Positions 1-32,504 of a stretch of 64,000 nt of DNA are shown in pieces. Within the stretch, counting starts at the first letter, position 1. Each line of letters starts with the position of its first letter. This DNA is from Pipra filicauda (Eukaryota > Chordata > Aves > Passeriformes > Pipridae). The stretch lies in assembly GCF_003945595.2 (NCBI RefSeq), contig NW_024103874.1, positions 2,304,001 through 2,368,000 of the forward strand, read 5' to 3'. Under the pieces are notes generated by a model. The model did no database searches and was not told where the DNA came from. It saw only the letters and a program-made list of their open reading frames with translations. The translations under genes and the position numbers were made by a program.

Positions 1-202
1 AAATTAGCAGCAAAGGTTTAGTATTTTTCAGTTCTAAGGCCAGATCCACCAATAAATAGATGCACATGTTCCTTGTTTCTGCTGCAGCTGAGCACTGTCA
101 AAACCAGAGTCACAGAAGCATCAGAAACACTAGTTCTAGCAGGCATTACTGTGAAATTCTCTTTTAAAGAGAAAAAAATATTCTATGGTTCTGTTTAAAC
201 AG

Positions 203-280
203 ACTACTATGCCTGGAATGAAACGAGACTGTGGTGGAGCAGCTGCTATTTTGGGTGCCTTCAAAGCCACTGTAAAGCAA
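203..280 (+). CDS. NPEPL1: NPEPL1 exon with RDCGG motif
   Basis: Twenty-six codons between a tttaaacag acceptor and a gtaagt donor, starting and ending in phase 0. It encodes [12 protein letters not shown] followed by an Ala-rich helix. The Asp of RDCGG corresponds to a metal ligand of M17 enzymes. Confidence 0.94.
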
Positions 281-6189: not shown

Positions 6190-7915
6190 CGCGCCCCAGC
6201 CCCGAGGGATGGGGGTGTGGGTTACCTCACTTTGCACTGATTCATTCTCAAGCAATGAAAATGTCACACATCAGAAATTGCCATTTTTTTTTTTTACTAT
6301 CATGATAAGATTTATTATTTGTTTCTGATAAGAACAGCCTGATGTATTGTTTTTTTTTTTAAATTATTGGTGCACACAGTTGCTGAACAATATCAGTGGT
6401 GCAGAGTCCAGGCTCAACTAACTGTATCAGGAAGAGGGCATGTCCTCCTCTGAGCTCCTCACAAAACCTAACTAAGTGCATTAATGCATGAGAAGCTCTC
6501 TCTAGTCTGAAGAAGCAACTGCAGCTATTGCTTACAAAGCCTTCTGAATTACTTATTATATGTGAGGTTTTATCAGACGTCTCTGCAGGCCCCTCTACAT
6601 CTCAGAACACGGGACAAAGTAAAAAAACTCTGTAGACTTGGCTTATTCAGAGACATTTTAGCTTAGGAAAAGGAGATGTAATGAGAAAAGGCCTATAGTT
6701 TTAATAAGGTGCTGTTTCCGCATGTTTAATGTTTTTCTGACCAGTGAAATCAGCAAGAGGGGTTCAGAACATATCTCTGTGTAGTTGTTTCACATACAAA
6801 TTACAGAATGTATTCACGTTAAATGAGGAAAACAATAGAGGGACTGTGATTGAGTAAAATCGGTTTACAAAGTGGTGGCTTCCTGCCACTTCATAAATTT
6901 ATTATTATTAAAGAAGCTTACATATCCCATGTGGTGTTCGGTGGTGTTATTTACATTTCTGAGAACACTGAGTGCTCCGAGAGTTCGTGCACTCCGTCAT
7001 TCCTCCGTCCACATTCCTCTTCCCAGCACTCACATCCCAAACCAGGCCTAAGAGAGGAACCGCTTCCACTGAGCAGCTGGGGGCAGTTCTGGAGAACTGA
7101 TTGATTCACTGCATTTGTTGGATTCAGCAGCAGCTGGGGATGCACAGTGTGAGTGTCTGTGCAGGCCAGTCACAGTTGCTCACGGGCACTGGTTTGGCTG
7201 GGACACCTCGGGAAGTGACTTGTCCCAGTTTGTGTCACGTCAGCGCTGGGAACGGAGCGACCGAGTCCCTGTCCCGTGGTTCCAGCATCAGCCTTTGGAA
7301 ACATTCCTTGGCTCCCCACCAGTGTCAATGGGGAAAAATCCCCCCCAGCACACAGTTGGCTGCTTTGCAGGTGAAGTCAAGCTGGGCTGGGATGGATTGT
7401 ACCTTTCCTTGTGTCAGAGGGGATCTCTGGAGAACTGGTGTTGGTTTTACTGGAGTTCCTGCAGTGGGATACACATCTGGCTTAGGAATTGGTCTTCCTG
7501 ATTAAAGACTTCATGGAAAGCTTGATGCAGAAGGGAGAAGAAACAGGTTTCATTCTATTCTGGCCCTATTTGATTCTTAGACAGAACGTAACTTTAAAAA
7601 CTAAATGAAACAAATCCACCAGAACTTCATTACTTCCTGTATTTGTTTCTCCCTTGCTGTTCTGGTTCCCTGGTCCACTTGAGCATAGTTTTAAGAGATT
7701 TGTATCTAAATGAGTTCTGCCTTTGGTTATTCTGGACACTTGGGATAAAGCATATCCCACCAAAAACTGCTGTGGGAAATGTGTTGATGAAGTTGTTTTC
7801 ATTACTGAGCACTGAAGTGAATGGCAACATGTTCTAATTTCTGTGCTCTGAAATCAAGTCTTCAATGCCCGTCCTGTAGGAACACTCTTCAAATAAATCA
7901 ATTCTAATTTTGAAA
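6190..7915 (+). other. NPEPL1: Probable NPEPL1 3' untranslated region
   Basis: No coding signal follows the NPEPL1 stop. The first well-formed AATAAA followed by T-rich sequence is at 7892-7897, which would give a 3' UTR of about 1.7 kb. An earlier cleavage site cannot be excluded from sequence alone. Confidence 0.5.
7892..7897 (+). terminator. Polyadenylation signal AATAAA, probably NPEPL1
   Basis: Canonical hexamer in the sequence cttcAAATAAATCaattc, followed within 30 bases by TTTTG and TGT elements. It is the best candidate for the 3' end of NPEPL1. Confidence 0.45.
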
Positions 7916-10286: not shown

Positions 10287-10358
10287 CTCAAACACTTCTC
10301 TTACACAAAACCCACAGAGAGAGTTCCAGGCAGTGTCCACCCATATGAAACCAGACAT
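10287..10358 (-). pseudogene. Piezo relic fragment, pore-proximal (around residue 2200)
   Basis: A 24-codon frame with SGFIWVDTAWNSLCGFCVRE resembles the PIEZO segment VWTDTTLSLSNWMCVEDIY, which precedes the inner pore helix. A Glu/Arg/Lys-rich stretch with a stop follows where PIEZO has a similar charged run. The piece is short, so the assignment is tentative; its place in the series is as expected. Confidence 0.35.
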
Positions 10359-10850
10359 TTTTTCCATAATCTTTTTATAGATTTGATAATATTTAACTCG
10401 GCATGTATTAAAAATGTATGGAGTACATAAAATTCATTATAAATGTCACCAAACAGGCCAATGGCTTTTTAATATCGCTGCCACAAGACTGCATTTTAAC
10501 CTATTTCCTGTCTGGATCCATTCCAGAGGCAATTCCAGGAGGGGAATATAGTTAGTCTATATTTACTTAGTCTGTTTAACTTTCAGTTAGTGTCTTTGGC
10601 TGATCCCGTGGCCGTGCTATTTTGGGATGATTTATACAATATTTACATTAAATTCTGCTAATATTTCCTTGCCTCTTGAAGTCGGATTACACTATTTACA
10701 TCTCAAAGGCCCAAGCTGGAGGAATAAGCAGCTGTTCCAGGCAGCAGAGAGAATTTAGCGTAGGGGAGGCTGCCAGAAAGGAGGCCATGTGTCTGAAATA
10801 CTCATGGAGGAATTATTTAGAATTGGACCAGTCCTCCATGAAGGAAGGGG

Positions 10851-11320
10851 GAATCATGGAAGGGTTTGGGTTGGAAGGGACCTTAAAGACCATCTCATTC
10901 CAAACCTCCTGCCATGGGCAGGGACACCTTCCACTATCCCAGGTTGCTCCGAGCCCCGTCCAACCTGGACTTGGACACTTCCAGGGATGGGGCAGCCACA
11001 GCTTCTCTTGGCAGCCTGTGCCAGGGCCCCACCACCCTCCCAGGGAAGGATTGCTTCCCAATATCTAATCTAAATCTGTCCTTTTTCAACTTAAAGCCAT
11101 TCCCCCTTGTCCCGTCATTTCAGCCCCTTTTCCAAAGTCCCTCTCCAGCTGTTTTGGAGCCCCTTTAGGCACTGGAGGGGGCTCTAAAATCTCCCTGGAT
11201 CCTTCTCTTCTCCAGGTGAACACCCCCAGCTCTCTCAGCTTGTCTTCAGAGGAGAGAAGCTCCAGCCCTCTGAGCATCTTTATGGCTTCCTCTGGACTTG
11301 CTCCAACTGATCCATGTCTG
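10851..11320 (-). mobile_element. CR1 retroposon, 3' fragment
   Basis: The + strand starts with gaatcatggaagggtttggg followed by ttggaagggaccttaaagac, the complement of the conserved CR1 3' end. It runs through the typical CR1 3' region to ctctggacttgctccaac. About 470 bp of a 5'-truncated copy in - orientation. CR1 is the dominant LINE of bird genomes. It interrupts the 3' part of the Piezo relic. Confidence 0.9.
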
Positions 11321-11661
11321 TAGATCAGAGGCAATTCCCATCTCCAGTGGTAGGGCAGAGCAGTTGGCTAAAGGGAATAAAGTGTCTCCTTTACTCAGGG
11401 CCTCTGTGTGGTGTGGCAGGAGAAGCAGGGCAATGGTCCTTTGGTGTGTGACTGTGCCTTTGACAAAGCTGAGACACACCTTCAAAACAGAGTTTGGATG
11501 CTGAGGTTGTATTTCCTAAAGCAAAAAAGTAAACTTTGGATTTATAAAAAAAGGTAAGACAAAATACATTCAACATCACTTAATTTAATTGCAAACACGC
11601 ATCACAATTGGGGGGAAAAAATTCCTCTCCACATGAATGGAATTTTACTTTCAGGATTGAC

Positions 11662-11832
11662 CTGTGCAGTAACAAAGCAGCAACTGGATGAGATCAAAGT
11701 GCACAGAGCCAGCCACCATCAACCCAACAGTATTTGGCAGAACAAATGGTTCCTCTGCATTGATGGCGCAATGTAATTTAGTGGTCCAGGGAAAAAATCC
11801 AAACTGTGATAATATTTGACAGCTACTGTTAT
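11662..11832 (-). pseudogene. Piezo relic exon with QFGFFPW motif (around residue 2011-2070)
   Basis: A strong acceptor (tggtttctttacccacacctctag) is followed in phase 0 by ITVAVKY, matching PIEZO1 IAVVVKY. After a one-base loss the match continues as SQFGFFPW, then EEPFVLP and VHFDLIQLL, matching FQFGFFPW, NKPYFPP and IKYDLVQLM. The 3' end is unclear: a GTCAAT donor-like site is followed by TGA. The frameshift is not in a homopolymer and is unlikely to be a sequencing error. Confidence 0.83.
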
Positions 11833-12214
11833 CTAGAGGTGTGGGTAAAGAAACCAAATTAGCTGGAATTTTGAGCTATAATTATTCTCAGAGGAATCTG
11901 CAGACTTTTTAAATATAGGGGATGGTTCCAACAGACATTCTTAATGGTTTGAAGTTCTGGAAGCAAATCTTGCTCTGAAAGCCAGTGAAACTTTAGGATG
12001 AATAAATATTTTTTCTTTTTACTCAATTTAGTTCTCATTTTCAAGTCAATGAATTGTCTGCAGTCCATGAACAAAACATTTGAAGTCTCGTGTCCTTGCT
12101 AATCCACCCTAACATTGGTCCTGAAGGACATTCATTGCACTTTAAAAATGTCTTGTTTGCAAAGTTACTCACTTCAATACTAAGAAAAACTTCATAGTAG
12201 TAAGAAAAACATAC

Positions 12215-12442
12215 CTGTGGATAAATAATAGCTGTCATCCAGAAGGATTTTGTTGACCTTGGAAAAGATAAAATGACACAGGAAAAAAAAAAAAAGAATA
12301 ATGGGCAGAGCCAAATTGGGAATTGAAGCAGAAATCCTGCGATTCAGAATGATCAGGAAATAGAAAGTCTTTCTGACTTGGACACCACAAAGCAGACAGA
12401 TAAAACCTCTCTGACTCCTGCAGTTCATGGTCATGAAATAGC
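12215..12442 (-). pseudogene. Piezo relic exon with FWMTAI motif (around residue 1940-2010)
   Basis: 228 nt between ccctgtggttcag and CCACAG|GTATGT. In the incoming phase it gives TFYFLIILNRRISAS and LALPIILF, matching PIEZO1 CYFIIILNHMVTAS and LVLPVLVF. After a run of 13 T (12283-12295 on the - strand) the match continues one frame over as FPRSTKSFWMTAIIYPQ, matching IPRPSKRFWMTAIVFTE. One T too many in the homopolymer explains the shift. This is the clearest Piezo match in the window. Confidence 0.85.
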
Positions 12443-12697
12443 CTGAACCACAGGGGTGGGAGGGAAAAAAAAACCCAGTTCAAATGAATCATTTCTGTTT
12501 TCTAGGAAAAGGGGTGTGAGATTGTTAAACAGCATTTTTAACCCAGAGAAATAAATAAATCAGACCAGGGGGTGGGAGAATGGAACCTTTTAACAACTGC
12601 ATGTGAATTGATAGGGAAGGGTCGTGATCTGCCACTGATGAACAATTCTCCAGGCTAGAAAACTGAGCAGGTGAGGGATCCATGTCTGGCATCTCAC

Positions 12698-12786
12698 CTT
12701 TGATGCTGCCTTCAGCTCCCATCTTTTCTGCTGCTTCAGCTCCACTTAATTCTTCAGCACTGTGGCACAAATGCGTTTTGAACAGC
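12698..12786 (-). pseudogene. Piezo relic, probable linker exon
   Basis: 89 nt between tttctgatattttcag and AAAG|GTGAGA, open in one frame (LFKTHLCHSAEELSGAEAAE and a further Glu/Ala-rich part). It ends with one base that joins in phase to the next exon at 12442. No sequence match to PIEZO was recognised; the assignment rests on splice sites, phase and position before the exon at 12.3 kb, where PIEZO proteins have a variable charged linker. Confidence 0.45.
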
Positions 12787-14039
12787 CTGAAAATATCAGA
12801 AAAAAAAATTAATAGATTATGATAATTTTAGGTAGAGGTAACAGGAGGTTCTTGCCCAATGGCAAATATCCCACCTGTGCTTTCCTATTTGCTCTGGGTC
12901 CTCCTCCCATTCATGCTCAGCCTGAGAGGTGATAACCACCAGCTCAAATCACTAAAACAGTCTGAAAATCAGTGGAGTTCAGAGTTTTGTGGGTGATTTA
13001 GAAGGACAATCCTCAAAATCCAAAGGAATTGTGCCTGTAAATACTGTGTGTGCTGCTGGGCATCTCAGTGCATGTTTAACATTGTAGTGCCAGTTAACCA
13101 TAGCATAATGGAACACCAGTTAATGTTTTTATTCTCTTTATTAATATCTTTAATGTAGTGTTCGTATAGTTTAAGGCAGTTGTTGAAAACAAAATTAAGG
13201 CAATAACTGCTCTAAATTAGGTGTGCACTTTTTCTGAATTCAATGTCTTACAAACACTGTCCTTGTGACAACTCAGTGGCGTAAATCTGTAACTTCAGTG
13301 TTATAGAAATGACCAGAAAATTCAGATTTGATTTAGAAATTACTTAAGAAATGAGAAACATTAAATTCTTTTAGTCTTTTTGTTCAACTAGTCAAATACT
13401 TTTATTCTGCTGTATTTTACAACATTTTTTTTTTCCTTTTAAACCAGCCCTAATGAGTAAATCCAGGTTGCAAATCTGGAAGTATTTTTCCCAAAGAACT
13501 AAGGTTAAAGCTAAAGCCAAGGAGACACTGGGTCTAGGCCTGGTGTTTAAAATACCAGCCACTTGTTTGTTATGGGCATCCCCACTCTCACAAGTGACTT
13601 TCTTCCCTATCTGGCTGTCACATTCTTTCTCCTAAGACTGGATATCCCACATCCTTCACAAGCAATTTGGTAGCACTTCACCACTTTTCCTATCTGTCTG
13701 AAATCATGCTCTGATAGCAAAATAACATTCCCAACAGCAGGCAAGCTCACAAACCTAATCCAAAGCCCGTTCTATGAATATCAAAATGGATGAGGATGGT
13801 TCTTGAATGCGTATTTTGTTGGATATCACTTTGACATGTAAGATACAAAGGCTGTGAGAGCGACAGAGACTTTCATCTCTTTGGCCAGCAGGAATTTAGC
13901 TTATGTCTTTTAAAATTGCCCCCCTCCTAGGAACACATGTAAGCTGGCAAGCCAGGAAATAATAAAGAGACAGTTATTCATCTGAGTATTTATACTTCTT
14001 CTGGTACTATTGTTTTTATTTTTGTGGAGCGCAGCTTAC

Positions 14040-14124
14040 TTTGGAGCTGGCCAGGATTTGGAAGCTGTCCATCCCCAGATCTAATATCCGAGACAGGAAG
14101 CGGATTTGACAGGCACAGGCAATA
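14040..14124 (-). pseudogene. Piezo relic exon (around residue 1420-1450)
   Basis: 85 nt between an excellent acceptor (gtgttgttttgtgtttgcctatag) and AAA|GTAAGC. The single open frame has 28 codons and contains QIRFLSRILDLG and QILASSK. It resembles the PIEZO1 segment QRRVFLSHYYLHV through LLASR, with a short gap. Splice sites and position support it; sequence identity alone would not. Confidence 0.45.
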
Positions 14125-14615
14125 CTATAGGCAAACACAAAACAACACCATAAAGGGTTGGCTCTGGCCCAGCTTTGTATGTGATGTTGAAACATTTGCT
14201 ATTCTGCTCAAGGTTCCTGCAAGGAAACATCTGTGAGATTCTGCCCCAGATAACATGAAGTGTTTGATCAGTCCCTGGTCACTAGAAAGGCACTGGGAAG
14301 GCTTCCCTATAGAATCAAAATGTGCCTCGTGTTGGAGTAATGAAACAGTGACGTGAGGCTTGGAGAGCTGTTTGCATCCCCTTGCTGGGGGTCCCCTCAC
14401 CAGTCAATCCCTGCTCCTGAACGAGCATCCCGAGGGAGCTCAAAGGACAGCCAGGGGCACTGTGGACTGTGATCCCTCATCCTGCTCTTGCTCTCCCCTT
14501 GCAGAGCTGGAAGGGCAGTACCCCTCCAGTCCTCTCTGCCACTCTTTGCCCATTTCCTTCTCGGGTCTTTTCTGCCTTCTCAGTTTTCCAAACCTAAAAA
14601 TTGCCCCAAGCAAAC

Positions 14616-14800
14616 CTTTGCAGAGAGCAGGAGAGGGGCCAAGACTCAGCAAATGCTGGAAGGCCACGACAGTGACCAGCAAACAGCAACACCTTGGCCA
14701 GATTTCAGCCACAGCTTTTCTCCAGGTTGCCCAACATCCACGAGCAGCACGTAGGCATCTGCATGGTGTGGGATAACGTGGTGGCAGCAGTGAGGTGCAT
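14616..14800 (-). pseudogene. Piezo relic exon containing LGPSPALC (around residue 1075-1140)
   Basis: A strong acceptor (ggctcactgcatccctgcag) opens a 185-nt exon ending at a weak AAG|GTTTGC donor. One frame gives GCWATWRKAVAEIWPRCC followed by a hydrophobic helix and HLLSLGPSPALC. It aligns with PIEZO1 GCWLVAIL, ARLWPNYC and YLLCLGMPPALC. After WP the two are gap-free for 25 residues; before it the copy lacks six residues. The upstream part matches only in another frame, so there is at least one frameshift inside the exon. Confidence 0.72.
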
Positions 14801-15512
14801 CTGCAGGGATGCAGTGAGCCAAGGAAACAGGCAGGCTTTGCAGATTACAGTGTGCTGTCATTTAGAAAATTACCCTGACTTGGCTTGTGCAACTTGAGAA
14901 CAGTTTGAACAAACATTTAAGAAAGAAAAAAAGAGACTACTGGAGTAAGAGTGTCTGTACTCAGAGATTACCTAAATTGCTATATTAGTGAGATGTTGCT
15001 TACAGAAGCCAGGGAGCAGTGTTGTTATTTACAGAGTGGAACATTAAAAGCAATATTCTGGTTTGCTGTGCAAGTGGGTGACAGCCCTGAGAGCTGATGA
15101 GAACCCCTGATACCACAACCCTCCTCCTGCTGTGTTGTGCAGCCCTGAGTGGCATCAGACACAGCAGGTGCCCCAAGGGAAGAGTTGGCATCTGTATATC
15201 CCTGCTGGTGTGTGGGCTTATGGCATGAGAGAATTTGGCCTCTGTTTAACTGAGTTTACCATGAGTGTTTTAATACCTTGGCAAACTGATGCCCCCTTCT
15301 TTAGGATACTTTTAGTCTCCTTATATTTCCTCACCTCCAATCCAAATTTGGAAAAACTGTAGATGAGAAAATATTTGACACAGCTGAGTCAAATCATCCA
15401 GTGCTCCTGAGTAATGCTCTCAAATCCAATCCCTTCATGGGTGGTGGCAGCTGGCTTTGACCCCGCAGACAAGCTGAATGAGATGCGCCATCATCTCCAC
15501 TGCTATTGCTCA

Positions 15513-15635
15513 AAAATAACTGTGTAGTTCTTCAAAATCTGTGCAAAATAGTCTTAGGTGTAAAGAAATCCAAAATGTGGTACTAAGTAAGAACTGGGAA
15601 AGGTGAATCCACTCTAAATCCACATTTAAAATGTC
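15513..15635 (-). pseudogene. Piezo relic fragment (around residue 690-730)
   Basis: A 41-codon open stretch beginning DILNVDLEWIHLSQFLL and ending in FEELHSYF resembles the PIEZO1 region GDLGLEQFSVSELFSSIL through the HYFHRPFMQLTD segment, with similar spacing of hydrophobic and acidic residues. A usable acceptor (cttcccagcag) lies just upstream on the - strand, but no convincing donor was found. The match is weaker than those of neighbouring pieces. Confidence 0.4.
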
Positions 15636-16585
15636 CTGTGCCTTTCTCTGCTGGGAAGATAATCTCTGTATACCACTTTCTGGGGCTGTTTTTAGGAGCA
15701 GCGGCTCAGTGAGAACTGGATGACCCATAGCCCATTTCCAGCCTGGAACACATGCAATGTCATGATGTGGGAAGATCCTCCTCATGCTTCTGCAGTAACA
15801 GGAATAACTAAAGGATTTGGGCCAGCAGCAATTTCAAGGAATAATGTTCCTGGAGTTGTGCAATAAAGATCCTAGTGGGAGAGGGCCTAAAGCAGAGTGA
15901 ATCAAGAACAATGCACTAAGATAAATGAGAAAATATTATTTGTTTCATAAATCTCCTCTCCATTGGCAGTCACAAGTATCTAAACAGGATTTTTATTTTA
16001 AAGAACCTTTTACACCCTGTTTATCCCATGCAGGTAATGGATTATTTAGCCTACTGACTGAACCAGTCATTTAAATGATTTCTGGCCAACTGGCAAGTAT
16101 GTTCCAGCTCTCCTTAAAAGAGAAAGCCAAACAAAATAGAAGGGTGAAAATTAGTGGAACTGTGTTTGGGAAAAAGAAAACAAACCCAACCCAACAAGCA
16201 GTCAGTGCAACTCCTGCTCATACTGCCAGGCCCTCCTCCTGGTAAACACCACAGCCTGATATGCAGCAGAGCTTGGGACTGCCTGGCCCTCCTATGACAT
16301 TGTTCCAGCAACCTTTCAGTTATTAAAATAGGGCTCCCACCTCGAGGCAGGGTCAAAGAGCCATTACTCCCCCAGAGCTCTCAGCACCAGCCTGTGGATG
16401 AACAGGAGCACAGCACGGAGCAGGTTTGTGCAGCAGCTCCTTCAGCCTGGCACAGTGGTGTCCATTAAGCTCAGGCTGACAAAACCTTTCTTTATAATTT
16501 TCCCCAACAAAATTTTAGAAGTGACAGTTTAATCCCTCTGAAAATCCGTGCTAAAAGGCACTATTAATTTGATTTTCATGCTTAC

Positions 16586-16762
16586 CTGGTACTGGGCCAC
16601 ACAGAACCAGAAGAGCACAGAGTGTTCCATGTGCCACCACGCTGCCATCGAGGCTGAGAATTAAAAACGTGGCAGCACAGAAATAGCTCCAGTGTTTAAC
16701 TAATGTTCCCTTAAGCAGAAAACCAAGGATTTCCAAAAGAAGATTATGTGGTTTGTCCCCTT
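16586..16762 (-). pseudogene. Piezo relic exon, open frame (around residue 575-630)
   Basis: 177 nt between cttctcattacag and CCAG|GTAAGC. It is open in the frame set by the preceding exon. It contains LLLEILGFLLKGTLVKHW, then CAATFLILS and VVAHGTLCALL. These align with the PIEZO1 segment LGELVKGVYAKYWIYVCAG and the hydrophobic helix after it, with matching Leu, Gly, Lys, Trp, Tyr and Cys-Ala positions. It is one of the best-preserved exons in the relic. Confidence 0.75.
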
Positions 16763-17026
16763 CTGTAATGAGAAGAAAACAAATCTGTTGGGCATGATGC
16801 TATCACTGCTCTGACTTGACACCTTTTTTATAATTATCCCTGCCTGTGGCTGCAAACGCCTCTATAGCAGGTGACTTATCTTGCCTTAAACATTGTCACT
16901 TAGCAACTGAGGTCAAAAATGCAGAGGAGACTGGCAGTCCCAAAGAGTGGTTACTGCTCCTGAATACAGTAACTTGCTGTCTTCTTCCTTACATGGCAAC
17001 CACTTGTCTTTCCCAAATACACTTAC

Positions 17027-17218
17027 TTGAAACAGCAACAAGTGAGAGCTGAACAACTGGTGGAAACAAAGGTATGTTCTTAGCTGCAGAAACTTCTGCT
17101 TCAGGAGCCAGGTATGGTCCTTGTGATACTCTGTGTTGCTCCCAGAATGGCTGGAAGATCTCTCCTGTGAGCACGAACACATCTCCCACCCCATGTGCTG
17201 TTATGAGATACCAAAAGT
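17027..17218 (-). pseudogene. Piezo relic exon, open frame (around residue 545-575)
   Basis: 192 nt from a gagaacag acceptor to a consensus A|GTAAGT donor. One frame is fully open for 63 codons, beginning DFWYLI, which fits the TFWLLL start of the matching PIEZO1 segment, and ending in VVQLSLVAVS. It leaves one base (A), which completes a Lys codon with the next exon at 16762. The agreeing phase across the intron is strong evidence that the pair belonged to one gene. Confidence 0.6.
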
Positions 17219-18370
17219 CTGTTCTCCAGCACCAAAGCAAAGCACACGTGGAATCTCCCAGACAAGCAGGTACCTGTGTACACAAATCAAGTGCTTGTGT
17301 TTGCACAACTCATATTTATTAAAACTGTCCTTAGAATATTTTGGTAACAGGTTCCACCCTTAGTTTAGCAAAACTCAGTGCTTAACTGTATTGCTGAAGA
17401 GAAGGTCAGAGAACCGCCCTAGGATGAACTTGGGTTGTTTCTTCGCTGTTTCCATTCCATATCACTTTTCTGAGAGATGCCTTTTTATCCTTCTTGTGTC
17501 TTTCAATCACATGTTGTCTTAGCAACAGCCAGACTGTGAATGAATAGAGGAGCTGCAATTAAACCACATTTGCACCTTTCTTTTTCCACAGAATTCGCAG
17601 AGATAGACAAGCAAAACTTTTCCTGGTTTGGTAATTGAGAGAGAACTAGAATCTTACAAACTATCTAAACAAGTCAGAAAGGCAACATACCTTGGAGAGG
17701 ATGTCTGTCCCAGTGGCCATAGCTTTTATATGTGTAAATTAAGGAGTTCAGGTTGCAAAGGTTTCGGAGGCAGGACTTGCTCTGTGTGAGTGTTGCACAG
17801 CACACTGTGAGGTCTGAGCATTATCAGAAATGAGGGCAACATCTAATGGCTGCACTTTTCTTCAATATGAGCAAATGGCTCTTTTCCCCAACAGTTAATT
17901 AAGTCAGCATAGGAAGAAGAAGGTTTCACTTGGCTACAGAGCACGATCCCCTCTGAATTCCATGTCCTGTGCTGAAGTGTCTCCGACAAACCAAATGACA
18001 AGTGTTCCCAACACCACAGTGTTCTCCCGTGCAGACTCCAGGACTGGCCACTCACCACTCCAGGCTCTCTTACAAAGCCGAATTCTTGGGCTATGATAAA
18101 CTGGTAGGCCTGGAACAAGCTCCCAAGATTTAATAACGAGTGTTGGACTTTGCATGTGGCCTGCCCTCAGACGCTGAAAATGTACACACCAAACGGCATG
18201 GATTTCATTAATGCCTTTGCCAAGTAATTTTGGTTTGTCCCTCACATCATTCCTAACGTGTTTTGGGTTAAGAGAGAGTACAATACAGCACCAGAATCAA
18301 AACACAGTTTTACTTTTCTCTCAGAGGCTGGCTCACCTGACCAGGGAATGAGAAAATGTGGAATTCCTAC

Positions 18371-18634
18371 CTCCCTGCCAAGAAGCAAGCTTGGCAGTCA
18401 GTGTGGTTTGAAGCCAAAGCTGATGAGAACTGATTGTGGGCTTGCAGGGAAGAATTCCTTTGGGGAGATACTTAGCCCTGCAAAGAAACTTAGGAGAACC
18501 AGGATGTTCCCAAAAGCAGGAAGGAATTGGGAACTACGCAAGGCATAATGCCTCTGGTCACGAGCCATCCCAGTGATGCAGGACCAAACCAGCAGAACAA
18601 AAGTGGAGCAGCTGGAATGTGCAATGCTCCGAGG
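18371..18634 (-). pseudogene. Piezo relic exon, blade transmembrane segment (around residue 470-540)
   Basis: A strong acceptor (gtttctgttgccttgcag) is followed in phase 0 by PRSIAHSSCSTFVLLVWS and then ALRSSQ. This aligns with the PIEZO1 stretch containing HSWLTFVLLLWACLIW and the following Arg-rich turn and helix. The frame runs about 78 residues and then meets TGA at 18398-18400, before the nearest donor-like gtagga at 18370. The stop is one sign that the locus is not functional. Confidence 0.65.
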
Positions 18635-21600
18635 CTGCAAGGCAACAGAAACACTCAGGGGAAGAAATGCTGCCATTTAAATTCCGGTATGCCTCAAAAA
18701 ATAGATGTATTATTGCATAGATTTTCTATATTATCCCTTCGGATTCCCTTGTGCAAAGCAAAATCAAGGATTAATCTGTTCCAGAGTAAAAATGTGTGTC
18801 TGCACCAAACAAATGGGCATCCCAAGGTCTGATTTGGTGTGTCTGTAAGGAATGTGGAAGGGAATCAGGGGTCAGTGTTCCTTTGGACATGTTTCTTGGT
18901 CCGGTCATGGTCTCTGTCACACTTAGAGTTTGTGTACACAGTCCCTGTGCCTTTCACTTGCTGTTCCAAATGCCATTATTGTCCCATTTCAGCAGGAAGC
19001 AGATGTGACACTGAAAGGTACATTAAAATTATGTTCAAATGTTACAAAACTATACTGTTAATGTGTCACAAAGTCAGTTCGGATAGACATAACTGATCAA
19101 GTGAGCGTGTATGCTCTTCATCATCATAAAGCTCTTGCAGCCAAATTTTATTTTTGGAGCTCATCTGGCACTGGAATTTCCTCATTCAATCATATAGTGC
19201 CTAGCCATGGTAAAAAAGCTAAAGGATGTAGCACCTCCCATCCAAACAGTTGTGTTTCCCTTTCCCTGTGGACCCTCCCCCCAGAAAAATCCCAAATGTC
19301 AGAGAGAATCTTTTGTGTTTGCTTGTGTTGGTTGTAAGGGAAATGAGTCCCTCCTCCAGCAGGTAAGTGTCTGAGCATTGACGGGTAACTGCTCCCCAGG
19401 GCTGTGAATTCACAACACAGCCACCTCCTTTTTTAAGACAGGATTAGGTGGCAACTGTGCTTTGGTCTGTGTCAGGCTTGGTCACGTAAGGATCCCCCTT
19501 GGTGTCCTGTACCTGATAAAGAAGGGCTGTGCACTGGGCCAGTGGTGGCAGGAGCTGTGCAGGACATGCTGTGCACACACAGTGACAGGGAGAGTCCTGC
19601 CAGCCCCCGCTTGCAAAACGAGCTCCCTGAGACATGAAACACGAGGCTATCGTAGGTGCAACCTCACCTTCCCACAGATTTTTCTGGTGCGCTGTTACAG
19701 GATGCTGGAACTGCTCTCTAATGACTCACTGTTCCTGCCTGTTGGCTGGGCTGTCAAGGTGTTGGGCTTGTGAATACTGGATTTGTTTGTTAAAAAATGC
19801 AAATGGGTGGAGGGAAAACGCAGGGAAGGAAAAGCAATAGCTCTGGGTTTCTCTGAACACATTTGTGTTGGTCAGAGGTAAAGCCAGTCTTCTTTATTCC
19901 CTTCATTCTTGGTCAGCTGTAGCACATTGTCCTGCTCCAGACTTCTGCTCTCAGCTGGGCACATTAGGACTTCTTGCCTGTACTCCTCCATTAAATATCA
20001 CCCCAGGATATCATTTTCCTGTAGCACAGCTACACACTGTCCACTACCACTGACAGCAGCTTGTTACCACAGTTTTACCCACACCCTTCAATTCTTCTAT
20101 TAGCAATCCTGTAAAAAGCAGGGGGGAAACATCAGTGTGAAGAATAATGGGAAAACCAAGCTATTGCTAAACAAGGCTCAAAACATCTTTGATGCACTTT
20201 CTCATCAGGGTGAGTGTGATCCCATCTGGGTGTGGGGGCAAGAAGCTTTGGGTAAACTTTGACTTTTAGATGACGAGAGACGGTTTGGTTTCTTTTTCAA
20301 GGTAAAGAGTAGCACCTTTTCCTGAGTTTTCTTCTGCCCCATATGTAAAATATCTTTTATTGAAATCAGAGTGGTTCTTGCCTAACCAATGAAAGTAGAA
20401 TCCAGCTAATAACCTTTAATGAACAAAACCTGTATTTTAAATTAACCAATAGCACATGGAAAACCCTGAAATACTAATTTTGTTTCTTCAGACACAATAC
20501 TGACAAAATGCCAGTTTAAAATAAAATAAAAGGACTGGCGTGTTTTGTAAGTCAACAATATTTTATTGCTAATTTTTCTCTCAAGGTGTGGGTCTGTAAA
20601 GAGTTTGGACTGTTAATGAAATGGAGAAGCACAGATTTCAGCTCCCTCTTCAGTGCAGTGGGTATTGCCAAGCTAATAATGCAGTTACAGGGTGCTGCTT
20701 TCAGTGAGGGGTAAGCTGTGCCAAAAAAAGCAACACTCATAAATTAGGTCATATATTCATGTTGTCCAATTGTTTCATGTACAAAGTTTACCAAGTCAGT
20801 ATTTTCTTTAAGGGTAAAGAATAACCAAGGGTATATTGCACAGATTATTCTTCAAAACAAGTTTCCAAAAATAATAAACACAGGAAAGCAAGTTCATATC
20901 AGATAATTAAAAACTCGGCTAATAGAATTTAAAGTAAGTAAAGTAAATTTTTTGTGTAATAGAACAACGGAAAAAGTTATCTTCCTTTTCCAGGAGAGGA
21001 AGTTGCACTCAGGTACAAGAACTGTAAGAATGCAAAAGTTTCAGCAGGAAAAATGAAGTTATATATGATAGGTTAAAATTTTAATGATGCATATTTTATA
21101 AGTAAGGCTGTTTTAAGGAGAAATCCTTTATGGAAAAAATTGCTGGTGGTGAACCTGAGGTGCAACTAATGTCCTTGTGCCAACAACAGGACTTTTTTAA
21201 AGCAGCTCTTCCTTTTCAAGCATCATTATTCTCTCTCACTCTTTTTCTCTGACATTATCTATAAGAAAAATCTTCTGGGGGAAAAAAAAGTCTTCCAAGG
21301 TTCTGACAAATAAATATGTCAGAGAGCACTGGAGAGCTTCCGAGGCTGCCCCACATAATAAATAAACCCAGAAGCTAAATTATTCTCTGCAATTGTCGTG
21401 TTACTTCTGTGGTTGGTGTAGCAAACTGTGAGGCTTCCCCAAATTGTGAGCTGGCAGGAATTGTTCACATTGCTTCGAGAAGGGGGAACAACCTTACAGG
21501 GAGCTGTTCCTGTTCCCTCCCCCCTCAGTTCTCTCAAATGGAAAGCACAAACTGTGTCCATCGATTGCTTTGCAGGTATATTTACTGTATACATTTCCAA

Positions 21601-24297
21601 TCATCAAACCAAAGGCTGGGATTTGCTTTCTGTCCAATAATCCTCATTTTCTCTGAAATGAGAACTATTGATCTCGTGTTTCACTTTAATTCAGACTCTT
21701 TATTGCTGAGCAATTACTCTGAAATGTGGCTCTAGGATCCTTCTTTCTAAATCAGAGTTTCTCTGCTTGATTTCTTACCTGATACAAATAACTAGTTGGA
21801 ACAGAAGTGTTCTTCAAATTGAAAATAAACCAAAAAATGTCTGGTTTTTCTTTTTTTTTTTTTTTTAATTAATGCTCAAAAGTCTAATTCTTGAATTTAA
21901 GATGAATGCAGACAGTCTGTATGCAACATATTCTTAAATGCTTAATAGGTCAAGTGGAGAGACTTTAAAGAAAATTCTGAACAGCAATCCTATACCTGTA
22001 GTAATAGGCAGGGCAGAATTAACCAGCAAGGCAGAACACAATGAATCTAATGATACTGGTACTGTTGCCTCACTCAGCAAATCCTCTTTCTGTCATATTA
22101 ATTATTTACTGAAGCCATTTTCTACTTAAACTGTGAAAGCTGAAATACTTCTGTGAATTTTCCTTTCACTTTGTGGCTAAGGAGTTCGTAGTAGATAACC
22201 CAACAGGACTGTATGGTGGGTCTGTGACTTCTGTTGCCAAATTTATCTGTGAATGAACTTTGCAGCTCTGAAAACACAGAGCTCTTTATGACTATTTGCC
22301 AAGAAAACAATTACAAGCTGTTTTAAAGCTGGCATTTGTGTGAAGTCTCCTTTTATGTTATTGTGAGTTTTAAAGGAAACTAATCACAGGCTGAAGCAGA
22401 GCTCCCATCCAGAGTCCAGTCAGAGTGGTGGAACATGTTTGTACTGGTCAGCACCTGGGTGCAAATGTTTGGTTGAAAGGATGCAGGTACCGTGTCCCAC
22501 CAATTCCCAGGGCTTCCTCCAGCCCCGGGCAGCTGCCTGCTGTTCCCACACTGGAACGGGAACTAGTTCAGGGTCTGTGCCTTAATTATGATCTGTCCAA
22601 AGGGAGTTTGTCTCTGTGGAGTGTCAGTCCTGCAGAGGAATGAGTCTTTCTGAAATCCTCAGCGTGAATGAGTCAGTCAAGGAGTGACACTGCAGGCTGT
22701 ACATGCTCACATCTGTTTACCAATTTCACCTCCAAGCTATTCCTACTCTCAGTGGAATTTAATTCAGTCCACGTGAAGGACATTGCATTCTGCACCTAAA
22801 ATCTTGTTGGAAAGACCACAGACACCTTCTCCTGCCCCGGATGTAGAAAGAAATATTTCATAACAGGAGTGCAAATGTCATCAGCAAAAATTAATAAAGC
22901 TCATCAAAACTTCCTGTGCAGTCCAGCAACAAACACCACTTGAGATACGACTGACGTGGAAAAGCACGTTTTTAAATGGAACAGAAACCAAAGTCTTTTG
23001 TATCATATAAACAAAGGAATGATTAAGGTGATAAGGTGATGTTATAATCCAGCTGAGCTCTCCCCGTGTAAAGCGCAGATTGCTTTGTTTAATTTGTGGA
23101 AACAGATTAAAGGTACACAAGTGGTTTAAAGGAAAACGCTGCGGTGATTTACTGATTGATTTTTATGGCCAGAGAGAAATGGGAAATAGGGGATTGTAAG
23201 GAAGGCACAAGCCCAGTGATCTTGGAGGTTGCCTAAGTTCTCAACAAGGTATGAACTTGTGCATCCTGGTATCTTCTGGTGTCACTAAGATGTGGCAATA
23301 AAATATTGAACAAACCTAAGAAAAACATGAATATCTACTCTGGAAAAACCCTTGAGATCTTTTTTTTTCCCAGAAAAGGCAACTTTGGAGAAAATGAAAT
23401 GTTTTAAAAGTCTTGTTTTCATGTTTTCTTACCAGCTATACACGAGCTGACTGAAATTAAAATGTAGATACAGGTTTAGCGAAAAAATCTCCTTGGTGTC
23501 GAATACTAAAAATTCTGGCCTGTGGCTCTGAAAGCAAGAATTCTTTGTCAGTACTTGCTTTCACATCCATAAAATGATAGACTTCTGCCTTATTCCTCTT
23601 GTAGCCTCTGTACCCATTGTTAATACAGCCTTTGGTGTCTTTTTTTGCCACGTTTCTTAACATGAAAAGACCTAATTGCCTTCAGTGTTCCATTCGTTTT
23701 TCAGTAGTGATAACAGCAAGGGGAATTGTGAACGCTTTGCATTTCCAGGAGGGCTTTTTTCCTTTGACATCTTTGTTCTCTCTTTCATTTGGGCCTTTCC
23801 ATTTGGTTCGGTAGAGGCTTCAGGTCTTCAGCTCAGCACAGAAGGACCCTCCTGGGTGAAGGGCAGCTGTCTGTCTGTCCCTGCAAAGGGCAGAGTCCTG
23901 TCTGCCCTAACAAACACCAGCCTTTTCCTTGGGACCCTCAACCAGATGTGGTTTGGCTCTGTCCAGGCAAAGAGTTAACCAATCCTTGCTCTACAGAAGT
24001 ACTGGGAAGTTGAAAGGTATGACTTAGTTAGTGAAGGTGAAGTAACAGCAAAGTCCAGCCTGTGAGGAGGATGAGAAGGAACACTGTATTTTCCCCTCAA
24101 GGTTTTTTTCCTGGTGTTGTACCAGAAAAGGTAAATTACTGATTTTTTTTTTTGTGCCTGCACCTGAGCACTGCGGCATTAGCAAGGACAAGAGAACACC
24201 TGGATTGATCAGACACCAGATATGAGAAAGCACAGAGGGAAATAACAGCCGAAACAGTGAAAAAGAAATGAAGCGGTTTTGTTCTTTTTTTTAACTT

Positions 24298-24335
24298 CTA
24301 ATGAGGCTGTTGTTAATACACCGGGGCCTCATTAG
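24298..24335. repeat. Perfect 10-bp inverted repeat with TAAT cores
   Basis: ctaatgaggc (24298-24307) is followed after 18 bases by gcctcattag (24326-24335), its exact reverse complement. Both arms carry a TAAT core of the homeodomain-binding type. It could be a paired binding site or chance; conservation in other birds would decide. Confidence 0.45.
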
Positions 24336-26499
24336 CAGCTTACAGGCGGCTTTAAAGCTGGCCATCTCAAAGGCAGCAGCTCTGCCTTTGTTCTGGGTGG
24401 ACACTTTGAGATGTGCTACCGCAGGACCAGGCACCAGCAAGCCCGTGGCACTGGTGACATCTAGAGGACTCCAGCTCTCGGCGTCAGCCACAGCTCCGTG
24501 CTGTGGAAGGACGGGCTTCCCAGCCGTGGGCCATCTCCTGCCGCCAGCTGGGCTCATCTCAGGCTGATGGGGCAGAGGAGAACATTAAAAACCAACCCCT
24601 GCGCACGTGTAACTGCCCCTGAGGAAACGCTCTGCTTTCCTCCCTCTGCAGCCCTCGCTGTAGCTTCAGCTTTCATTAGCTTATGGTGTGAACTGTGCTG
24701 CTGGAAGCGAGGAGCAGAGACCAATATCTGCTACTTCACTGCTGTGACTGACTTATCAGGAGCCTGTGACTGGGGAAGCTCTGACACTGTTCCCAGAGCC
24801 AGGGTTGAGTGACGGTGTGTGACACAGAGCAGATGCAGCTGCTGTGCTCTGGGAGCATATCCCCCGTTCCCCTCCCTTCACTGACAGTATTTTGCCCTGG
24901 AATAATAATCAGAATTATTACTACAACTGCAGCTATGGTGCATTGATGCCTCTATTTTCTGCAGTCCTAATGAGAGGCAGGAGGCAGGTGTTCAGGCAGC
25001 ATGAAAAAATATACAGAGACGGTGTAAGTGGGAGCTCAAACTCCTCTGCAGGGCTGCTGCCTCCCAGCTCTTTGAGGCATGTCACTGCAGTGCCTTCCTG
25101 AGAGCTTGGGTTTGCTCAGCCTCCTTGGTCCTGGCAGCTGCAGCTCTCCCTTGGCTCTGGAGTGTGTTGGCACAGTTCAGTGGCAGAGGTGCCAGGCTGC
25201 TCCAGGGCTTGCCAGCAGTGGGGATACCAGCCTTCCCCACCTTCCCTGTCCTGCACAGCCAGCAATGCTTTCATGTTCAGTGCTTTTTTTACTAAGAAAG
25301 TAGATCCCTTGTTTCTCTGACATTTTCTCCTTTAAAGCTGCATGAGAACAGTGAAGTCTAGCAGGCAAAGTCAGCCTGACCCAGTGCTTCAACAGCAAAT
25401 ATTAAACTGCAGCACTCAGAGAAATGATGAAATCTTTACTGGTAGAATTTAACAACCTACTTAACATTGGAGCCAACCAGGAGAGATTTATAAAGCTGTA
25501 AAATCAGCTAATTCTGTTTTAGATTATTTCAAAACCTGAACAGCACAAACTGTCTTTAAAATCAAAGGGCAAATGTGACATTTAAAAATGAGGTTATACT
25601 TCATATGGCCAAACTTAAACGCTGTTGACCCAATCACATAACAAGTATTTTTGAGGAATAGCAGGGAGAAGGATTTCTGGAACTGTTTCCACTCAGACAG
25701 GAAATGGATGGTAGTCTCCATCTCTCTCAAGACTGCCCCTCCAGTCTATGCTATTCTAAAAGTCCTCTTTCCTATGACTTCCTCCCATGCCCACAACACC
25801 TCTGTGCTATTTGTTTGCTCTTTCTCTCACTCACAAAGCGCTGCAGGACCCTCAGTGCCCAAATCAGCCAGGCCCCGTGTTTGCAGAGTGTTTCTCAGAA
25901 AACCCTTTTGGGCTGCACAGTCAGGCTTGGGACTCGCCACACTTTGGGCATTAGTCACTTAAAACCAGAGGGCTGTAATTGCTCCCTCACTAAGCCTGAC
26001 AGAGGAGCGTGTAGCACTGTTACCCACTTCAGTTAAGTCTTGTGTTAATTCCGTGAATAAGAGCACTGACATATGATACAGTATTTGCAGGACGGAGCTT
26101 CTAAGCAAAGCAGGATGCTGGCTGAACTCCAGGGCATACAGTTGCTCTTTGCTTATTGCACCAAACATACAGTTATATCATCCAAATTGTACATCTGAGT
26201 AAGAGTTTGCCAGTTCAAGTGAAACGCTTTGCTCAAGTCTTACTCGTTTTTTCCAAAAGGTTATGTGATCTTTTCAGACACTGATTCAGAAATGAGTGTT
26301 CATGGAGTGAACAACACGCTGGCAGAGGAGCACACAGCTTCTCCAGGCTGGCTTCAGCTTCCTCCTGCAGAAAGGCAACCTGAGCTGTTTCAGGATACGA
26401 GGACAGCCACAGGATTGGAAGGATGATCGCTGGGAATTGCATGTTTCATTGGGAATACATCACGTTGCCAACTGAGCTTTTGAAGTGGCTCGCCGCTGC

Positions 26500-26840
26500 C
26501 TGCTGGCCAGGACCGTCCATGAGCCCGTCACCCCCGGTGCCAGCAGTGCCACTGCGGGACCGCTCGCCCCGTCCCTCGCCCCGTCCCTCGCCTCTGCCCG
26601 CGGGCGCTATCTCAGTGCGGGAAACCACACGGGGCTGCTTTTTCCTACCCCGGCTGATAAGAGCCAACAGATGTCAGTGCAGCCTGAGTAACACGGGGCC
26701 GTGCTCTGCTCAGGGCTCTGCTGCTGCAGGAACACCCCTGGGTGGGAGTTCCACCATCAGGCGGCCGCGACAGACCCGGGCGAGGGGGAGAGCGGCGCCG
26801 GGAACAGTATCGGTGTGTTCGGGGCGGCTGGAGAGGCTCT
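26500..26840. promoter_or_regulatory. GC-rich, CpG-containing segment
   Basis: Locally rich in CpG compared with the flanks, with a duplicated cgccccgtccct near 26567-26592 and a GATA motif (gctgataag). No exon could be assigned. It may be a regulatory element or an old CpG island of the antisense Piezo locus. Confidence 0.35.
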
Positions 26841-26846
26841 CACAGC

Positions 26847-26872
26847 TAAAAATACCCGCCCGAGTATTTTTA
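26847..26872. repeat. Short hairpin-forming inverted repeat
   Basis: taaaaatac (26847-26855) and gtattttta (26864-26872) are perfect 9-bp arms around an 8-base CG-rich loop, at the edge of the GC-rich segment. Confidence 0.5.
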
Positions 26873-27380
26873 AAAACACATTCGAGGGTCCTTATAAACA
26901 CACAGACTTTTGTTGACAGAACAAGACTGCTCATTTATGCTGTGTATTATCCTTGAAAACCTGCTCTGTTTGTGCAGGGAGTCCCATGACAACCTCGGCT
27001 TGCTGAGGGTGCCACAATGATCTCAACAACAAACGTGTCCCTTTATCTGCTGGAGAGGGGCAGAGGGGAAGCAGGAAGTATCTGCAGGCTGTAGGAAAAG
27101 CAGTTAAGAAATGGAAATAAGCTGCTTTATCAAAATATTGCTTTGCTGTTTTCGCAAGTGCAATGCCAGCGGTTTTCTAGCCCAGCTCAGGGCACCTCTT
27201 CTGTGGCAGGTTAATGCCAGATATGTGTATAAAGCCCAGTAAAATCAGTGGAATTGGGTAGGCCATCTGGTTAAGTGATTGATGTCTGAATGGAAGGAGT
27301 TTGACAACGGGATTTTCTTTTCTTTCCACCTGCAGCCATAAATATGTTTTCAGGTGACATCCCAGAGCAGAGAACCTCAC

Positions 27381-27471
27381 CGTAGAGAGGTTACACATGG
27401 TCTGCAGTGGGAAGTAAAGAAAGAAAAAGGAAAGTATTTTGATATTCCTGAAGGAAAACTGGGGCATGATG
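27381..27471 (-). pseudogene. Piezo relic, second coding exon equivalent
   Basis: On the - strand a pyrimidine-rich acceptor (gtttttgtttacag) opens a 91-nt exon closed by ACG|GTGAGG. In the only open frame it gives one carried codon plus 30 residues containing PQFSFRNIKILSFFFLYFP. This has the same length and hydrophobic pattern as the second PIEZO1 exon (LLRFSGLSLVYLLFLLLLPW region), including the conserved Phe and the transmembrane stretch. Sequence identity is modest; length, phase and splice sites carry the argument. Confidence 0.5.
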
Positions 27472-30400: not shown

Positions 30401-30897
30401 ATTCACAGACCACTCAAACACATTTCCTGAACTTTGTTCTGGCACCCTCTCTTGCTGTCACTGATTGTTCCTGGAATCGCTCTGGGAACAGGACACCAGG
30501 GAGCCAGTTTGCAGAGAAGCCTGAACTCCCTCCTACAGGGCAGGACACAGGGTGAGCCTCACCAAAACCTCACTGCTGCCTGCCAGGACCCTGCTCTCTG
30601 CTGGACCCGGGGCACTGCTCCTCCTCTGCTCCAGTGCAATCAAAGGGTTCATTTAAGGCTGGATCCCAAGACTGGGAGTAACAAAAGGAATACATAAGAG
30701 TGCTGGTTAGCTCACCTGGTTAACAGTGACCTCCGTGGGCAGCTCCTACCCTGGCAAAGCTGTTCTGATGCGTCAGCAACAGAAATCCTCAAAGGTGTCA
30801 TAGAGGATATGACCTGCTCAGCCTTTTGCGTGGTGCTAATAAAGAGGGAAGAGAGGGCCACTGTAGCAGGATCTGTCCTTCTGCTGACACAGACCTG
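27472..30897. other. Gene-free stretch
   Basis: The first coding exon of the antisense Piezo relic should lie here or further right, but I could not find it. An AT-rich repetitive tract occurs at 27737-27792. Nothing else recognised. Confidence 0.5.
27737..27792. repeat. AT-rich simple repeat (ttaattatttta-like)
   Basis: Several imperfect copies of ttaattattt and tatttaatt in tandem over about 55 bp; low complexity. Confidence 0.7.
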
Positions 30898-32142: not shown

Positions 32143-32389
32143 ATGGGGCTGTGCTACAGCCTGCGCTCCCGCCTGGCCGCCGCGCACCCCTCCGCGCCCT
32201 ACGGCGGCCGCGGCGAGCCGGACACCCCCGGCGCGGCGGCGGAGCACGGGGACCCGCAGGTGCGGCACCGGCTGCGGCAGGACCTGGTGGCCAAGGAGCG
32301 GGCGGACAAGAAGCGGAGCAAGAGCATCGACAAGACGCTGAAGGCGGAGAAGCGGGAGTACAAACAGACGCACCGGCTGCTGCTGCTGG
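32143..32389 (+). CDS. GNAS: Alternative first coding exon of GNAS, avian XL-alpha-s-like
   Basis: 82 codons plus one base from ATG in an optimal Kozak context to CTGCTGG|GTGAGC. The exon ends THRLLLL(G), the exact junction used by Gs-class G-alpha first exons before the P-loop (GAGESGKS) in exon 2. The preceding helix has ERADKKRSKSIDK, closest in memory to the mammalian XL-alpha-s stretch RAEKKRSKLIDK and less like ordinary Gs-alpha. The N-terminus MGLCYSLR is that of the long GNAL isoform and offers Gly2 and Cys4 for lipidation, fitting membrane attachment and adenylyl cyclase coupling. The long mammalian XL Pro/Ala-rich domain is absent. Position downstream of NPEPL1 on the same strand supports GNAS over GNAL. 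Exon 2 is outside the window or unrecognised. Confidence 0.88.
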
Positions 32390-32504
32390 GTGAGCGGGGC
32401 GGCACAGCCCGGCCCGGCAGGTGCGGGGGCCGAGGCCGCCGCCGGTGCCCGCGGGCGGAGGGGCTGCGGGGCGGGGCGGGGCGCGCACGTGGCGGCACCG
32501 CCGG

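What the first reader, a model, noticed from the sequence alone, without database searches (positions are those of the whole stretch)
10287..27471. A decayed third Piezo channel gene antisense between NPEPL1 and GNAS
Seen: ordered - strand pieces with PIEZO-like motifs (FVLLVWS; LLKGTLVKHW; AEIWPRCC and LLSLGPSPALC; FYFLIILN and SFWMTAI; VKY and QFGFFPW), several bounded by good splice sites in agreeing phases. Known: amniotes are generally described with PIEZO1 and PIEZO2, neither of which lies between NPEPL1 and GNAS. Inference: a third vertebrate Piezo existed here and was lost in this lineage. Intact orthologues might survive in other reptiles, amphibians or fish at the same location.
Basis: partly seen in the sequence, partly recalled or inferred. 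Interest (0 to 1): 0.92.

Follow-up and report, generated by a model that had tools for sequence, protein, structure and literature searches.

The report
Relic of a lost third PIEZO gene
Between two ordinary genes lies the decayed wreck of what appears to be a third PIEZO touch-and-pressure channel gene, most likely a sister of PIEZO2 that evolved on its own for a long time before it was lost in this animal's lineage.

Summary
Searching the window with PIEZO1 and PIEZO2 gives nine colinear minus-strand segments, from PIEZO2 residue 510 (18634) to the C-terminus (7660). The chained score is 501, against a maximum of 224 in 400 shuffled-sequence chains. In 10-25 kb, minus strand, Pfam names only a Piezo family at E below 1. 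Splice sites remain at several segment ends, so this is a decayed intron-containing gene: one in-frame stop, five frameshifts, no recognisable pore.

It is not a recent copy of PIEZO1 or PIEZO2. It keeps 125 of 195 positions shared by both, yet at 107 positions where they differ it matches PIEZO2 at 29 and PIEZO1 at 19; simulated neutral decay of either gene does not give that. Its address fits: published gene lists run PPP4R1-RAB31-VAPA-PIEZO2-GNAL-TUBB6 on 18p and PPP4R1L-RAB22A-VAPB-NPEPL1-GNAS-TUBB1 on the duplicate block, and the relic sits between NPEPL1 and GNAS.

Best reading: a third vertebrate PIEZO from the 2R duplications, lost here. The tree alone does not settle its exact branch. 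Intact orthologues could not be searched for. Coordinates should be about 7660-18634.

The parts
18476..18634 (-). Segment A, PIEZO2 510-562 (PRSIAHSSCSTFVLLVWSC...LVLLSFFAG); acceptor TTGCAG at its start, no good donor at its end
   Evidence: tblastn 51.6 bits to PIEZO2, E=1.8e-8; sequence view; edge positions and weak donor score
17463..17552 (-). Segment B, PIEZO2 about 587-616 (LLYSFTVWLLLRQHVIERHKKDKKASLRKV); acceptor AATTGCAG
   Evidence: tblastn E=0.012 to PIEZO2, 0.15 to PIEZO1, in order between A and C
16586..16762 (-). Segment C, PIEZO2 675-727 plus a short start; acceptor CATTACAG and donor CAG|GTAAGC; one frameshift near its end (..GTL / VLFWFCVAQYQ)
   Evidence: tblastn E=1.9e-4 to PIEZO1, 0.001 to PIEZO2
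15335..15427 (-). Segment D, PIEZO2 about 1111-1142 (..LSCVKYFLIYSFSKFGLE); in-frame TGA at 15391-15389; donor GAG|GTGAGG
   Evidence: tblastn E=0.023 to PIEZO1, 0.13 to PIEZO2
14617..14739 (-). Segment E, PIEZO2 1164-1210 (..RKAVAEIWPRCCCLLVTVVAFQHLLSLGPSPALCK); six residues missing against PIEZO1/2 in the alignment; weak donor
   Evidence: tblastn E=4.4e-7 to PIEZO2, 9.8e-6 to PIEZO1; alignment
12215..12453 (-). Segments F1 (12453-12397) and F2 (12365-12215), PIEZO2 1954-1972 and about 1996-2043, in three reading frames (two frameshifts) with an internal loss; donor CAG|GTATGT
   Evidence: linked tblastn HSPs E=4.8e-10 to PIEZO2
11649..11832 (-). Segment G, PIEZO2 2044-2104 (ITVAVKY / SQFGFFPW..DLIQLL / ALLLHRSILK) in three reading frames (two frameshifts); acceptor CTCTAG
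   Evidence: tblastn E=9.3e-5 in the window and 1.6e-6 in the restricted interval
7660..7710 (-). Segment H, the PIEZO C-terminus (FRYKSLKTMLKWTREPE), end of the gene
   Evidence: tblastn E=0.2-0.5 in the whole window, 0.004 (PIEZO1) and 0.01 (PIEZO2) in the restricted interval, at the expected end of the colinear chain
10290..10349 (-). Doubtful piece (FIWVDTAWNSLCGFCVREVF, PIEZO2 2423-2442); not counted among the nine segments
   Evidence: E=1.7 in the restricted interval, within the noise
200..6186 (+). NPEPL1, last exons (flanking gene)
   Evidence: tblastn with recalled human NPEPL1, six exon matches of 79-93% identity; Pfam Peptidase_M17
32143..32391 (+). GNAS XL-type first exon (flanking gene), MGLCYSLR...KERADKKRSKSIDKTLKAEKREYKQTHRLLLLG
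   Evidence: tblastn with recalled human XL-alpha-s end (E=9e-10) and XLG-alpha-olf start (E=1e-6)

Best explanation
This is a unitary, intron-containing pseudogene of a third vertebrate PIEZO. It is most likely the 2R duplicate of PIEZO2 that was retained next to GNAS while PIEZO2 was retained next to GNAL. When alive it would have been a trimeric force-gated cation channel of the PIEZO type (inferred from homology only). It evolved for a long time under its own constraint, was then released and decayed: reading frames broken (shown), pore, cap and N-terminal exons no longer recognisable (shown), splice sites partly still in place (shown). It cannot now encode a PIEZO channel. Relaxed need, with PIEZO1 and PIEZO2 covering its role, is the inferred reason for the loss. 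Roughly 0.2 neutral substitutions per site since release suggests something of the order of 80-200 million years at recalled rates of 1-2.5e-9 per site per year; this is rough, and too low if only the best-kept segments were found.
For: Colinear segments far above shuffles on the minus strand only. PDB and Pfam searches of the frame name only PIEZO. Splice donors at the ends of C, D and F are each among the best 0.05% of minus-strand positions from 7 to 19 kb. In-frame stop and frameshifts. Identity 167/346 to mouse PIEZO2, 151/347 to mouse PIEZO1 and 92/309 to Drosophila Piezo, while mouse PIEZO1 and PIEZO2 share 210/358 over the same segments. Neutral-decay simulation excludes a simple dead copy of PIEZO1 or PIEZO2. 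Tree: best as sister of PIEZO2; inside the mammalian PIEZO1 clade rejected (AU 1.8e-8 and 2.6e-7). Paralogous blocks: 18p lists ...PPP4R1, RAB31, TXNDC2, VAPA, APCDD1, NAPG, PIEZO2, GNAL...TUBB6; pig chromosome 17 lists PPP4R1L, RAB22A, VAPB, STX16, NPEPL1, GNAS, TH1L, CTSZ, TUBB1. PIEZO2 lies antisense to GNAL in human (recalled), as the relic lies antisense to the GNAS XL exon.
Against: The tree does not significantly separate sister-of-PIEZO2 from sister-of-PIEZO1 (AU 0.22) or outgroup to both (AU 0.09), and one of two placements inside mammalian PIEZO2 is not rejected (AU 0.14; the other 0.009); its bootstrap run timed out. The excess of PIEZO2 over PIEZO1 matches at diagnostic columns (29 to 19) is not significant (one-sided p 0.097). 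No non-mammalian PIEZO1/2 was available. No intact orthologue was seen. Only about 359 of 2822 PIEZO2 residues have a recognisable counterpart.
Confidence: 0.86

Rival explanations
1. A later duplicate of PIEZO2 (or PIEZO1), made within tetrapods or this lineage, landed here and decayed.
For: Sister-of-PIEZO2 is the best tree and one placement within mammalian PIEZO2 is not rejected (AU 0.14). The simulation starts from human proteins, not from this animal's own.
Against: At 107 columns where PIEZO1 and PIEZO2 differ, the relic matches PIEZO2 at 29 and PIEZO1 at 19. PIEZO2 copies decayed to the same loss at shared positions (d=0.2) keep about 70 of their own residues (minimum 51 of 400 runs) and gain at most 10 of PIEZO1; even at d=0.35 they keep at least 40 and gain at most 12. 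The address matches an ancient duplicated block.
Confidence: 0.06
2. A third PIEZO older than the PIEZO1/PIEZO2 split, or sister of PIEZO1, from the same ancient duplications but with another branching order.
For: Both positions are within the AU confidence set (0.09 and 0.22).
Against: Slightly lower likelihood (3.0-3.2 log units); the neighbouring genes pair with those of PIEZO2.
Confidence: 0.06
3. The locus is not silent: the old PIEZO transcription unit is still transcribed as a non-coding antisense RNA beside GNAS.
For: Good splice donors survive at C, D and F; mammals have an antisense transcript at GNAS (passages of PMC2374978 and PMC3693910).
Against: No expression data were available; splice sites can survive by chance at this divergence, and the donors of A and E are weak.
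Confidence: 0.05
4. Chance resemblance of hydrophobic reading frames to PIEZO.
For: Most segments are short and hydrophobic, and several are weak on their own.
Against: Chain score 501 against a maximum of 224 in 400 shuffled chains, background on the plus strand and in reversed sequence; C-terminal segment at the expected end.
Confidence: 0.005

Closest known systems
PIEZO2 (mouse 6kg7, human 9vee)
   Same: 167 of 346 aligned residues identical (mouse), same order of segments, shared stretches (FHDxELxESExFY, HRSILK, FCVAxYQ), neighbour is a GNAS/GNAL gene
   Different: Frames broken, pore, cap and N-terminal exons not recognisable, different locus (beside GNAS, not GNAL), PIEZO1-like residues at 19 of 107 diagnostic columns
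PIEZO1 (mouse, human)
   Same: 151 and 153 of 347 aligned residues identical
   Different: As above; both places inside the mammalian PIEZO1 clade are rejected
Extra Piezo genes of fishes (carp piezo1a/b; zebrafish piezo2a, piezo2b)
   Same: Extra PIEZO copies in vertebrates, as named in passages of PMC12652723 and PMC5533457
   Different: PMC12652723 describes the carp pair as a duplication of piezo1; in the passages seen none is placed beside gnas
Unitary pseudogenes of 2R duplicates (general class, from knowledge)
   Same: A single-copy gene of an old duplicate block decays in place
   Different: This family is generally described as having two members in amniotes (recalled)

Membership tests
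PIEZO family | Significant sequence similarity in colinear order | tested here: met
PIEZO family | Pore module (inner helices, cap, CTD) | tested here: not met
   Only 17 C-terminal residues are recognisable; in the restricted search of 6187-11900 no other piece past PIEZO2 residue 2104 was better than E=1.0. Hence a relic of a member, not a working member
PIEZO family | Open reading frame | tested here: not met
   One in-frame stop in D, one frameshift in C, two in F, two in G
PIEZO family | Force-gated cation current | not testable with these tools
   Needs an intact orthologue
Unitary (not processed) pseudogene | Introns at coding positions with splice signals | tested here: met
   Acceptors at A, B, C, G; donors at C, D, F; weak donors at A and E
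Unitary (not processed) pseudogene | Intron positions equal to those of PIEZO1/2 genes | not tested
   No gene structures of PIEZO1/2 were at hand
2R paralogue of PIEZO2 | Lies in the block paralogous to the PIEZO2 block | tested here: met
   Gene lists in passages of three papers with NPEPL1 and a GNAS XL exon confirmed in the window
2R paralogue of PIEZO2 | Branches beside PIEZO2, outside its crown | tested here: inconclusive
   Best of seven placements, but three rivals within the AU set
2R paralogue of PIEZO2 | Orthologues at the same place in distant vertebrates | not testable with these tools
   Protein database off; genome search unreachable in 12 of 12 tries

The most novel reading that the evidence does not exclude
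The lost PIEZO gene left its transcription unit behind: the antisense RNA at the imprinted mammalian GNAS locus (Nespas / GNAS-AS1), which lies in the same interval on the same strand (recalled), descends from this PIEZO gene's transcription unit, as XIST descends in part from a dead protein gene (recalled).
Probability: 0.06. Interest if true: 0.92.

Novelty: new member of a known kind. Interest (0 to 1): 0.75.

Why it matters
The abstracts and passages seen here speak of PIEZO1 and PIEZO2, apart from extra fish copies. A third, anciently separate PIEZO changes the starting point for how touch and pressure sensing was divided among paralogues. It also tells exactly where to look (upstream of GNAS, antisense, next to NPEPL1) for intact copies in other vertebrates, which would be directly testable channels.

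Tried and rejected
Rejected: chance similarity; another Pfam family on the minus strand of 10-25 kb (the only other line was DUF7649 at E=2); processed pseudogene (splice sites); simple decayed copy of PIEZO1 or PIEZO2. Restricted searches for further pieces gave only noise: N-terminus in 18640-34000 best E=0.4; 1205-1953 in 12.4-14.7 kb best minus-strand E=0.26; 721-1124 in 15.4-16.6 kb best minus-strand E=0.66. A first shuffle control used an E-value cut-off unfair to the shuffles and was replaced.

Led nowhere: Rfam scan of the window, 0 families at the gathering score; Pfam scan of two of three plus frames in 34-64 kb, 0 families; repeat searches for species clues: no CR1-type ATTCTRTG ends, and apart from tandem and T-rich stretches only one inverted pair of 40 bases or more. 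The species is unknown to me; a repeat-poor sauropsid such as a bird is only a guess. Paper searches aimed at a third vertebrate PIEZO: none of the papers listed shows one by title or abstract start, but searches listed only 25 of 427, 25 of 418 and 12 of 44 papers. Of the two papers holding 'Piezo3', the passage of PMC10854220 uses it beside PIEZO2, apparently a slip; PMC3297154 was seen in the listing only and concerns tactile sensors. Subscription papers are mostly not held. PMC7384764 (passages) suggests that PIEZO1 and PIEZO2 may lie on a paralogon with CNGB1/CNGB3; not tested here. [quoted passage not shown]
Full report
What is there. Three minus-strand frames of 10-25 kb were searched with stops read as X. 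One frame gives PDB PIEZO2 chains at E=2.5e-9 with four aligned stretches in order, two of which pass alone, and Pfam THU_Piezo1 at E=5.9e-6, 26.8 bits against a cut-off of 27.2. The other two frames give no Piezo hit. tblastn with PIEZO1 and PIEZO2, without composition correction, gives a colinear set of matches from 18646 down to 7660: PIEZO2 506-559, 576-623, 675-720, 1125-1142, 1176-1210, 1954-1972, 1997-2050, 2053-2097 and 2805-2819. In one search the plus strand gave only two places, at E=0.65-0.76.

Is it more than chance? Matches of at least 20 bits in 6187-32000 were chained in order. The real minus strand scores 501, the plus strand 151, and the reversed sequence 108 and 129. Four hundred strand-chains from 200 dinucleotide shuffles have mean 128, sd 30 and maximum 224. 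With matches of at least 24 bits the values are 372, 24, and 29 and 75, against mean 25 and maximum 82. With PIEZO1 as the query the minus strand scores 335 against a maximum of 243. The best single matches with PIEZO2 (60, 54 and 41 bits) exceed every shuffle (32.4 bits).

Anatomy. Segments A, B, C and G begin at AG sites, and C, D and F end at GT sites. The donors CAG|GTAAGC, GAG|GTGAGG and CAG|GTATGT are each among the best 0.05% of all minus-strand positions from 7 to 19 kb; those at the ends of E and A are weak. The donor scores use recalled consensus frequencies. The intron between F and G falls at a codon boundary on both sides, as read. So this is the wreck of a gene with introns, not a processed copy. 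Lesions: an in-frame TGA in D (15391-15389), one frameshift in C, two in F, two in G, and six residues missing in E. The nine aligned segments (F counted as F1 and F2) correspond to 359 of 2822 PIEZO2 residues. The N-terminal 500 residues, most of 730-1110 and 1210-1950, and the pore and cap region are not recognisable.

What it is related to. Over the nine segments the relic shares 167/346 residues with mouse PIEZO2, 167/346 with human PIEZO2, 151/347 with mouse PIEZO1, 153/347 with human PIEZO1 and 92/309 with Drosophila Piezo (segments F1 and H missing for Drosophila). Mouse PIEZO1 and PIEZO2 share 210/358 over the same segments. In an LG+G4 comparison of seven placements, sister of PIEZO2 is best. 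Sister of PIEZO1 (AU 0.22), outgroup of both (0.09) and one place within mammalian PIEZO2 (0.14) are not excluded; the other place within PIEZO2 (0.009) and both within PIEZO1 (1.8e-8 and 2.6e-7) are. At 107 columns where PIEZO1 and PIEZO2 differ, 29 matches to PIEZO2 against 19 to PIEZO1 is not a significant excess (one-sided p 0.097). The bootstrap run timed out.

Not a dead copy of a known PIEZO. Of 195 positions identical in mouse and human PIEZO1 and PIEZO2 the relic keeps 125; of 93 positions also identical in Drosophila it keeps 62. That loss corresponds to about 0.2 neutral substitutions per site in the simulations. If the relic were human-like PIEZO2 decayed by that much, it should still match PIEZO2 at about 70 of the 107 diagnostic positions (minimum 51 in 400 runs) and PIEZO1 at about 4 (maximum 10). 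It matches 29 and 19. At d=0.35, which fits the overall identity instead, the bounds are still 40 and 12. Starting from PIEZO1 gives at d=0.2 about 72 own (minimum 58) and at most 9 of PIEZO2. The relic therefore diverged as an independent constrained gene first and decayed later. Caveats: human PIEZO1/2 stand in for the unknown copies of this animal, and the segments were found by their likeness to PIEZO1 and PIEZO2.

The address. The 18p gene lists in PMC8104293 and PMC11272337 (passages) run PPP4R1, RAB31, TXNDC2, VAPA, APCDD1, NAPG, PIEZO2, GNAL... TUBB6. The pig chromosome 17 list in PMC2374978 (passage) runs PPP4R1L, RAB22A, VAPB, STX16, NPEPL1, GNAS, TH1L, CTSZ, TUBB1, with about 94 kb between the listed NPEPL1 end and GNAS start and no gene listed there. 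PPP4R1/PPP4R1L, RAB31/RAB22A, VAPA/VAPB, GNAL/GNAS and TUBB6/TUBB1 are paralogous pairs in the same order (pairing from knowledge of the families). In the window NPEPL1 and a GNAS XL-type exon are confirmed, with the PIEZO relic between them, just where the PIEZO2 block predicts a PIEZO. PIEZO2 lies antisense to GNAL in human (recalled); the relic is antisense to GNAS too.

How it worked and what happened. Inference from family membership: a force-gated cation channel with a long blade and a central pore. It became dispensable in this lineage and decayed. At recalled neutral rates of 1-2.5e-9 per site per year, 0.2 substitutions per site would be about 80-200 million years. The segments found are the best kept ones, so the true age may be higher.

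Limits. No vertebrate genome collection and no broad protein database could be used, so orthologues, this animal's own PIEZO1 and PIEZO2, and the species are unknown. No paper listed was seen to describe a third vertebrate PIEZO; three of those lists were capped and most subscription papers are not held.

Noticed in passing
32143-32391 (+): A GNAS XL-type first exon; its start MGLCYSLR matches the recalled start of human XLG-alpha-olf (GNAL), suggesting that the XL exon predates the GNAS/GNAL duplication. With recalled human GNAS no other exon, including exons 1 and 2, was found in the window at E up to 0.01.
   Followed up: partly
44659-45608: A tandem array of about 68 copies of a 14-base T-rich unit (TTCCACAATTTTTT), with strong strand skew.
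   Followed up: no
32489-32730: GC-rich tandem repeats right behind the XL exon (CCGGGGGATGCTGTGC and variants).
   Followed up: no
4541-4620 (+): ARAGORN calls a tRNA-Thr (ggt) between two NPEPL1 exon matches, but Rfam found no family at its gathering score, so it is probably spurious.
   Followed up: partly
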